Assembly: GCF_006352475.1 (NCBI RefSeq)
Contig: NZ_VCMZ01000001.1
Coordinates: 2,418,001 to 2,482,000, forward strand
From: Acinetobacter pullicarnis
Lineage (GTDB): Bacteria > Pseudomonadota > Gammaproteobacteria > Pseudomonadales > Moraxellaceae
Length of the DNA stretch: 64,000 nucleotides
Reading direction: 5' to 3'
Position 1 is the stretch's first letter; each line of letters opens with the position of its first letter. The notes beneath the pieces are model-generated. The model was not told the DNA's origin and searched no databases. It saw only the letters and a program-made list of their open reading frames with translations. Positions 50,701 through 52,725 of the stretch are shown in pieces. The translations under genes and the position numbers were made by a program.

Positions 50701-52725
50701 TTAAATGGACCAGTGACGCTACCTGCATTGTTGGTGACACCGCCACCTAAAATGTTGCTCACTGAATCAGTCGTGCTGTCCAACTGGCTACCATTGATCG
50801 CGTCAGTTGAAGTCGAAGAGACAGTACCTGCAGCTAAACCACTGATTTTATTGCTTGAACCATCAACGAGAATATCGCCAACTTGCACTGTATCGAAGCT
50901 AACGTCTTTCTTAGTTTGAACCGTGTACTCTTTACCACCAGCTGCATTAACGCCTTCTGTAACGTCAACATTTTCACCTGCAACAACAGTGGCATGTTTA
51001 CCTGCTTCAGTTAAAGCTTCATTTGCAATATTGGTTACGTCAGTAACGTTTTCATTGGTTGCATGTAGCTGACTACCATTCACTGCATCTTTAGATGTAG
51101 CTGAGAGCTCGCCTGCTGCAACATTGGTGACTTTTTTACCACCCGCATTGATGCCTGCTGTTGTAATGCTTGGACCATTATTAATGGTTAAACCATCAGT
51201 ATTGATCGTTGTATTGCCAGTTTTAACCGAATTAAAATTCACATCATTACTGGTGCCAACCGTTAATTTATTGCCTGTGCGTTGAATGTCAATATTTTGA
51301 CCATTCAAAAACTCAACTGTGTCACTCGCTTTTACAGCAGATGCCGTATCGTCATTGGCTTGGATTTTCCAAGTTTGGTTTTGTAGGCTCGTGATATTAG
51401 TCGTATTGGTTATTGTTCGACCATCTAAATTCGTAATGGCAGCCCCGACATCATTTACAGTTGTACCACCTACATTATATGTTGGCGCAGTAATGCTACC
51501 TGTAGTTTTATCAAGTACAGAACCTCCACCTAAAGCTTTAGCCGTACTATCAGCCACTTTATCTGTATATAATTTTACAGTGGTCAATTGCGCAACGTTG
51601 ACAACATCTGTATCAGCAGTGCCTGCTGCAACACCTGTAATTTGACGAGTTACATTGTTTTTGACATCGCCAACAGAAACGGCAGCACGTGTCGATTTCC
51701 AAGTTGAGTCTGTCTTAGTTGAACTCGTCCCAGTAATTGCATCATATCCAGCTACTTTAGCATCAATGACTGAGACTGAACTTGTACCTATTGCTACGCC
51801 ACCATCAATTGTTGCTTTTGCACCAGTACCAATTGCAGTACCGTTTTTATTCGCTGATGATCCACTACCAATTGCAGTCGCATTATCACCTATCGTTGTT
51901 GCACCTTGACCAGGCTTATTCCCCGAACCGATTGCTGTAGAGTTAATACCACCAGCAAGCGTATTAATCCCCAGTGCTACAGCACCTGATTTAGTTGCTT
52001 GAGATACAGCACCAATTGCTAAAGCGCCTTCATCCGATGCTACAGCCTTGGTTCCTAAGGCTATAGAAGCGATACCGCTTGCTAAAGACGTTGTACCTAT
52101 TGCCGTCGAAAATGCACCGCTCGCAACGTTTTGTATTCCTAGTGCAATAGAAGCACCACCACTCGATTGCGTTTCTTTATAATCACTTTCTATTAATGTA
52201 TCACCTGTTAACGTAGTATATTTTTTACCATCTTGATCAATAACGCGATCGATATCATCTCCTCCAATCGCAATAGATGAATGCCCAGTCGCTCGCGTAT
52301 TTGCTCCTAAACCAATCGCTTGATCACCTGACGCTTGACTGTCGAAACCAATCGCAATCGCTTGGTTATATTTAGTTAGATCCGAATAGGTATCACCATT
52401 AGGTCGAACGGCTTGTGTAGTGGCATCACCACCAATTGCAATAGAATCTCTAGTTGGCGCACATGCCACCCCCCCCCTCACCAATAGCTATACTTCCAAA
52501 TGCTTTAGTTCCCCATCCAGCACTTGACGTTGTACAATTAAGAGCGGTACTCCCAGTACCTGCTTGATATGCAAACGCATCTGCTGAGAAACTCACTATC
52601 CCAATAATTGTAACGATCGAACCAACCGTCTTCGCAGTTGATTTTGATTTACTTTTAGCCAATTCTGAAACCGCCACCCATGCCCCGAGTGATGCATTCC
52701 AAATGACTCTATAGACTTTATTCAT
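44727..52725 (-). CDS. ataA: trimeric autotransporter adhesin 2, frameshifted at a poly-G tract (likely phase-variable, off)
   Basis: Giant Ata/AtaA-type surface adhesin. The start MNKVYRVIWNASLGAWVAVSELA is an extended signal peptide with cleavage near SADAFA. After 91 codons the frame ends at a TAG (52450-52452) because of a run of nine G (52469-52477 on this strand). The long second frame from the tract to 44727 carries the rest: YadA-like head repeats (SIAIGGDA, GVAIGTSS types), a neck, eight 119-residue stalk units, 233-residue units with TSTRIVYEKADGTTEEVATLNDG, and a full YadA-like anchor ending FRIGISGVID. With eight or eleven G the two frames join (EGGVACAPTRDSIAIGGD) into 2665 or 2666 residues. 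The tract could also be a sequencing error. Confidence 0.9.
46621..48018. repeat. two 699-bp tandem repeats in adhesin 2
   Basis: Equivalent points such as 46579 and 47278 lie 699 bp (233 codons) apart. Each unit codes from LGDNFTVNN-GAHYDGD through KDGLNGTDGISLTAKDGAPG and TSTRIVYEKADGTTEE to LSKDLTGLNSV. A third, more divergent unit follows toward the C-terminus (about 45.96-46.62 kb). Confidence 0.82.
48053..50908. repeat. eight 357-bp tandem repeats in adhesin 2
   Basis: Eight copies of a 357-bp unit (119 codons) in exact register, for example VGDILVDG-coding points every 357 bp from about 48371 to 50870. Copies differ only at a few positions (SSNK/SNNK, STST/SAST, SEGDN/SQGDN). The period keeps the frame, so copy number can change stalk length without inactivating the protein. 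Confidence 0.93.
52469..52477. repeat. homopolymer of nine C (poly-G on the coding strand) in adhesin 2
   Basis: Nine consecutive C on the plus strand, read as GAG-GGG-GGG-GGT on the adhesin strand, directly after the codons for SIAIG. With nine G the frame ends seven codons after the GGT; frame arithmetic shows that 8 or 11 G would be in frame with the downstream 2585-codon frame. Confidence 0.9.

What the first reader, a model, noticed from the sequence alone, without database searches (positions are those of the whole stretch)
52450..52725. Poly-G tract that would phase-switch a giant trimeric autotransporter
Adhesin 2 opens with an extended signal peptide and runs 91 codons before a stop. 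A run of nine G on its strand (52469-52477) lies at the exact point where the frame is lost. Downstream a 2585-codon frame continues with head repeats, stalk and anchor. By direct arithmetic, 8 or 11 G joins the two, and the joined sequence (SIAIGEGGVACAPTRDSIAIGG) keeps the SIAIG-type head pattern. Seen directly: tract length and both frames. Known: slippage in poly-G tracts switches related Moraxella catarrhalis adhesins (hag/MID within the gene, uspA1 in its promoter). Inferred: the same switching here, currently off.
Basis: partly seen in the sequence, partly recalled or inferred. Interest (0 to 1): 0.85.

Follow-up and report, generated by a model that had tools for sequence, protein, structure and literature searches.

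The report
Slippery G-run splits giant adhesin gene
In this bacterium, likely an Acinetobacter, a run of nine G's sits where the reading frame of a giant surface-adhesion gene is lost, so the gene is split as sequenced; copying slips in the run likely caused the split and would switch the adhesin on and off, as is known for related adhesins in Moraxella.

Summary
On the minus strand nine G (52469-52477) lie where a 91-aa frame with an ESPR signal peptide is lost and an overlapping 2585-aa frame with YadA head, stalk and anchor begins. A continuous 2316-aa homologue named A. seifertii matches the first piece before and the second after the tract: halves of one trimeric autotransporter (TAA) gene. 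A TpgA-like gene follows. Of 20 runs of 8 or more G in the genome it is the only one found at a frame loss. In a second genome of the genus (G065) the anatomy recurs: ESPR piece and 3349-aa remainder overlapping at 11 G, just before a homologous head block, then tpgA. Of 136 ESPR-gene 5' ends read, 3 hold 9 or more G (0.05 expected from background, 0.30 from synonymous shuffles): 1 broken there, 2 open. Against: no second strain or reads, so length variation was not seen; one tract has equal length in its nearest relative; 9 of 10 early-stopped genes have no such tract. Best reading: poly-G slippage locus of the hag/MID kind, off as sequenced; reversibility untested. The neighbouring adhesin is also interrupted, by an insertion element. 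New member of a known kind.

The parts
52469..52477 (-). run of nine G at the point of frame loss
52450..52725 (-). 5' piece of adhesin 2: 91 aa, extended signal peptide (ESPR) and start of the head
44727..52484 (-). rest of adhesin 2: 2585 aa, YadA head, stalk, membrane anchor
48032..50921 (-). about 8 tandem copies of a 357-bp unit (98% matches) inside adhesin 2
43839..44660 (-). TpgA-like protein (BamE and OmpA domains) downstream of adhesin 2
53248..53284 (-). terminator-like hairpin between clpB and adhesin 2 (adhesin 2 probably has its own promoter)
53318..55927 (-). ClpB-type AAA protein, upstream neighbour
39407..41950 (-). 5' piece of adhesin 1 (ESPR, head, stalk)
38101..39409 (+). 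insertion sequence with 24-bp perfect terminal inverted repeats and a 3-bp flanking direct repeat, inside adhesin 1
32776..38130 (-). 3' piece of adhesin 1 (stalk, anchor); the ORF begins inside the insertion sequence
31900..32772 (-). TpgA-like protein downstream of adhesin 1

Best explanation
A giant trimeric autotransporter adhesin gene is split as sequenced at a nine-G run near its 5' end, and the split is likely a slip of the DNA polymerase in that run, which would make the gene a reversible on/off (phase-variable) switch. Shown: the two frames, their overlap at the tract, and their match to consecutive parts of one continuous homologue. Inferred: with the present length, ribosomes starting at the ESPR frame stop after 91 codons and no fibre is exported; the downstream frame alone has no ESPR. 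Inferred: gain or loss of G in some cells changes the register and lets the full adhesin be made with its TpgA-like partner, so that a population holds adhesive and non-adhesive cells. Untested: the slippage rate, the reversibility and the effect on adhesion.
For: Pieces colinear with the continuous homologue P0011: its residues 1-102 match the 5' piece, 113-408 and the C-terminus match the 3' piece. The 2585 downstream codons are open with head, stalk and anchor matches and the tpgA-like ORF is whole, as expected for a recent or reversible break. The only one of 20 runs of 8 or more G in the genome found at a frame loss. Second case: G065 has an ESPR ORF and a 3349-aa head/stalk/anchor ORF overlapping at 11 G, followed by a TpgA-like ORF, with a homologous head block after the tract (47% identity over 209 aa). 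3 of 136 ESPR-gene 5' ends hold 9 or more G, against 0.05 expected from 240 such runs in 175 genomes (mean genome size taken as 3.45 Mb) and a mean of 0.30 in 300 synonymous shuffles, 2 of which reached 3; no C-run of 6 or more in the same frames. Precedents: G(n) tract in the mid/hag ORF, 6 to 10 G in five M. catarrhalis genomes (PMC7302503, passages); a nine-base A tract early in the Bartonella TAA gene badE that lost a base in five evolving populations (PMC11466379, passages).
Against: No length variant of this tract was seen: no other strain of the species was found. The 9-G tract of G136 has an equally long but interrupted counterpart in G093 (87% identical), both in frame, so that tract differs by substitution and not by slippage. 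At 8 or more G the count (3) is not above synonymous shuffles (mean 1.8; 80 of 300 reach it), and the threshold of 9 follows the window. 10 of 136 ESPR genes stop before codon 500, and 9 of these have no run of 8 or more G before the stop, so frame loss is common without a tract. Nine bases is a short run (recalled), and mutS has a whole open frame.
Confidence: 0.6

Rival explanations
1. An accidental, mutation-prone tract: the gene was inactivated once by a slip and is a young pseudogene, without evolved or frequent reversal.
For: ESPR genes in the genus are often broken without tracts (9 of 10 early stops). Adhesin 1 beside it is broken by an insertion element, so loss of both adhesins may be favoured in this strain. 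A 2025 review describes the siaD tract as such an accidental case (PMC11868660, passages).
Against: No stop in the 2585 downstream codons, domains matched, tpgA-like ORF whole; the same anatomy at a comparable place in G065.
Confidence: 0.25
2. Assembly or sequencing error in the homopolymer: the gene is in fact intact.
For: Homopolymers are a typical error site of some platforms (recalled); reads were not available.
Against: 14 of the 19 other runs of 8 or more G lie inside open frames, and in 8 of these 14 a Pfam domain spans the run. Those 8 are all runs of 8; no other run of 9 or more could be tested this way.
Confidence: 0.1
3. Programmed translational frameshifting or transcriptional slippage on the G-run yields some full-length adhesin from the split gene.
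For: Runs of identical bases can promote both (recalled).
Against: No tool result supports it; the four continuous homologues in the alignment need no such event.
Confidence: 0.05

Closest known systems
mid/hag of Moraxella catarrhalis (G(n) tract in the ORF; PMC7302503, passages)
   [quoted passage not shown] 6 to 10 G in five genomes. That it is a TAA is recalled.
   Different: length variation and switching shown there, not here; the nearest homologues here are Acinetobacter TAAs, and a TpgA-like gene follows
Bartonella badE (PMC11466379, passages)
   Same: nine-base mononucleotide tract in the first part of a TAA reading frame
   Different: A instead of G; length changes observed in an evolution experiment
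AtaA/TpgA of Acinetobacter sp. Tol 5 and Ata of A. baumannii (PMC5861075, PMC6363060, passages)
   Same: TAA followed by a TpgA protein with BamE/SmpA and OmpA-like domains
   Different: no poly-G switch in the passages read; the words 'phase' and 'frame' do not occur in the main text of PMC6363060
A1S_2091 poly-T tract of A. baumannii type I pili (PMC4256060, passages)
   [quoted passage not shown] baumannii
   Different: T tract, pilus cluster, not a TAA

Membership tests
Trimeric autotransporter adhesin (type Vc) | ESPR signal peptide, YadA head, stalk and anchor | tested here: met
   ESPR in the 5' piece; head, stalk and anchor in the 3' piece
Trimeric autotransporter adhesin (type Vc) | trimer assembled on the cell surface | not testable with these tools
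   needs experiment
AtaA/TpgA type | TpgA-like gene directly downstream | tested here: met
   43839-44660, BamE and OmpA domains
Simple-sequence-repeat phase-variable locus | homopolymer in the 5' part of the ORF at the point of frame loss | tested here: met
Simple-sequence-repeat phase-variable locus | tract length varies between strains or cells | tested here: inconclusive
   no other strain found; for the G136/G093 pair the length is equal
Simple-sequence-repeat phase-variable locus | reversible, high-frequency switching of expression | not testable with these tools
   needs reads or culture
Simple-sequence-repeat phase-variable locus | tract enriched over background in this gene class | tested here: inconclusive
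   3 of 136 with 9 or more G, above background and synonymous shuffles; not enriched at 8 or more; threshold chosen after seeing the window

The most novel reading that the evidence does not exclude
Acinetobacter giant AtaA-type adhesins carry a recurrent poly-G contingency site just before the first conserved head block (found split there in two species), which makes extreme stickiness a bet-hedged trait: a rare attached sub-population and a majority free to leave, with the second adhesin of this strain shut off by an insertion element.
Probability: 0.3. Interest if true: 0.65.

Novelty: new member of a known kind. Interest (0 to 1): 0.5.

Why it matters
In the passages read, Acinetobacter is credited with a regulatory colony switch (PMC11868660, PMC6650576) and one proposed poly-T pilus tract (PMC4256060), not with slippage control of its giant adhesins. 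If true, laboratory stocks, vaccine studies and the use of AtaA-like fibres for cell immobilisation would have to reckon with adhesin-on and adhesin-off cells, and genome surveys that call such genes broken would undercount them.

Tried and rejected
Strains of the same species: DNA of the tract region matched 65 other genomes of 175 in the genus, but every listed match of another genome lay in the signal-peptide part and none reached the tract. Genome contigs gave 1 distant locus, 44% identity (the tool says that records of or very near this genome may be left out). Proteins: best-scoring hit 58% identity over 85% of the 360-residue query (120 of 1743 shown, and only 7972 candidates scored); the short piece found 23 others, none close over its whole length (best 64% over 90%).

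Synteny: clpB is in 175 of 175 genomes. In the 29 relatives' clpB loci that were read (of 174; flanks 1.5 kb, L238 shorter) no ESPR-type start was found by a pattern, so no orthologous locus gave a tract to compare. The DNA alignment with G017, G047 and adhesin 1 shows similar signal peptides but no comparable G-run at the tract. Other TAA genes or pieces of this genome: no run of 7 or more G in the regions read. mutS loss: rejected, one whole open frame. Structure prediction was not run, as it would not bear on the switch.

Sampling: one search listed 150 places by my count, with more not listed. 140 were fetched; 3 own places, one contig-end fragment and 6 at the foot of the list were not. 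4 of the 140 could not be anchored on the start and were dropped. Most stretches reach about 1.7 kb past the start; some are shorter at contig ends and two are longer. One of the ten early-stopped genes (L128) contains an unread base.

Full report
What is there. The minus strand has nine G at 52477-52469. An ORF from ATG 52725 ends at 52450 after 91 codons; a 2585-codon frame in another register begins at 52484 and runs to 44727. The short piece has an ESPR signal peptide (PF13018). The long one has YadA head, 11 stalk stretches and the anchor, with about eight 357-bp tandem units. A TpgA-like gene follows (43839-44660). A terminator-like hairpin separates clpB from the adhesin. The genus is inferred from named proteins among the hits (Acinetobacter); the tool does not name it.

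One gene, split at the tract. The continuous 2316-aa protein P0011, named A. seifertii, aligns by residues 1-102 to residues 1-82 of the 5' piece and by residues 113-408 to the 3' piece from its fifth residue; the C-termini match as well. In the alignment, homologues named A. proteolyticus and A. courvalinii run straight through the place where the tract lies here. I compared the pieces separately and joined nothing.

Is it chance or artefact? The genome has 20 runs of 8 or more G (27 overlapping hits, merged), 6 of 9 or more. Of the other 19, 14 lie inside open frames of at least 100 aa that go on for 36 or more codons after the run, and 5 lie outside such frames. In 8 of the 14 a Pfam domain spans the run; for the other 6 an intact gene is not proven. 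The assembly therefore does not miscount G-runs generally, although those 8 are all runs of 8. mutS is present with a whole open frame.

Relatives. In 175 genomes of the genus ESPR was found in 115. I fetched 140 of the 150 listed places and could anchor 136. 3 of 136 have 9 or more G in the stretch read: G065 (11 G at nt 945, frame lost there), G136 (9 G at nt 225, open to the end of the stretch) and G059 (9 G at nt 189, open likewise). Genus background is 240 runs of 9 or more G in 175 genomes, which predicts 0.05 (taking about 3.45 Mb per genome); shuffling synonymous codons gives a mean of 0.30, with 2 of 300 reaching 3. The threshold follows the window, so the test is not blind, and at 8 or more G there is no excess (3 against a mean of 1.8; 80 of 300 shuffles reach 3).

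The G065 locus repeats the anatomy: ESPR ORF 2000-3022 and ORF 2955-13004 (3349 aa; head, stalk, anchor) overlap at the tract, then a TpgA-like ORF at 13037-13870 (L209). The head block after the tract is homologous (47% over 209 aa), and in both genes the tract lies just before it. Parts of the long frames are also close (59-61%). This is the strongest support that the site matters, though shared ancestry of the two genes, rather than two origins, is possible.

Results against. In G136 the nearest relative G093 (87%) has the same length with interruptions, so that tract shows no slippage. Ten of 136 genes stop before codon 500, nine without a run of 8 or more G before the stop. No length variant of the window's own tract was seen, and no second strain was found.

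Known ground. M. catarrhalis mid/hag has a G tract in the ORF with 6 to 10 units in five genomes and on/off switching; uspA1 has one upstream (PMC7302503, passages). Bartonella badE, a TAA, lost a base from an early nine-base A tract in five evolving populations (PMC11466379, passages). In Acinetobacter a poly-T tract in a pilus gene was proposed as phase-variable (PMC4256060, passages). A 2025 review mentions, in the passages seen, only the regulatory colony switch for this genus (PMC11868660). My searches brought up no paper that I recognised as describing slippage switching of an Acinetobacter TAA. Most of the listed papers were not opened. Of those opened I saw passages only: PMC4647330, PMC7302503, PMC6363060, PMC5861075, PMC11868660, PMC6333632, PMC4256060, PMC11466379, PMC6650576, PMC8304980, PMC10038080, PMC8286834. 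Subscription journals are mostly not in that library.

Verdict. A split TAA gene at a poly-G run is shown; slippage as the cause is likely; reversible switching is the best-supported but untested reading.

Noticed in passing
window 38101-39409, inside adhesin 1 (pieces 39407-41950 and 32776-38130, minus strand): The neighbouring TAA is interrupted by an insertion sequence with transposase ORFs (HTH_Tnp_1, rve), 24-bp perfect terminal inverted repeats and a 3-bp ACC direct repeat, so both adhesins of the pair are broken in this assembly.
   Followed up: partly
L209:2000-13870 (G065): A second TAA gene of the genus split at an 11-G run, with a TpgA-like gene following.
   Followed up: yes
L214:6348-8381, run at 7143-7151 (G000:C1, minus strand): Another 9-G run of this genome lies in an open 677-aa frame with bacterial Ig and cadherin-like domains, possibly another surface protein; its TTG start and partial first domain match suggest a missing 5' part.
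   Followed up: no
L028:2382-18464 (G000:C1): A third TAA of 5360 aa, unbroken and followed by a 273-aa ORF, has no run of 7 or more G.
   Followed up: no
G030:C45:3222-3231: A 9-G run lies by its coordinates far inside a 2495-aa ESPR frame (start near 8572, minus strand), about 5.3 kb from the start.
   Followed up: no
L141, L190, L149, L159, L100, L196, L202: Seven ESPR genes of the genus stop before codon 500 without a run of 6 or more G or C, or 7 or more A or T, before the stop; frame loss in this gene class looks common.
   Followed up: no
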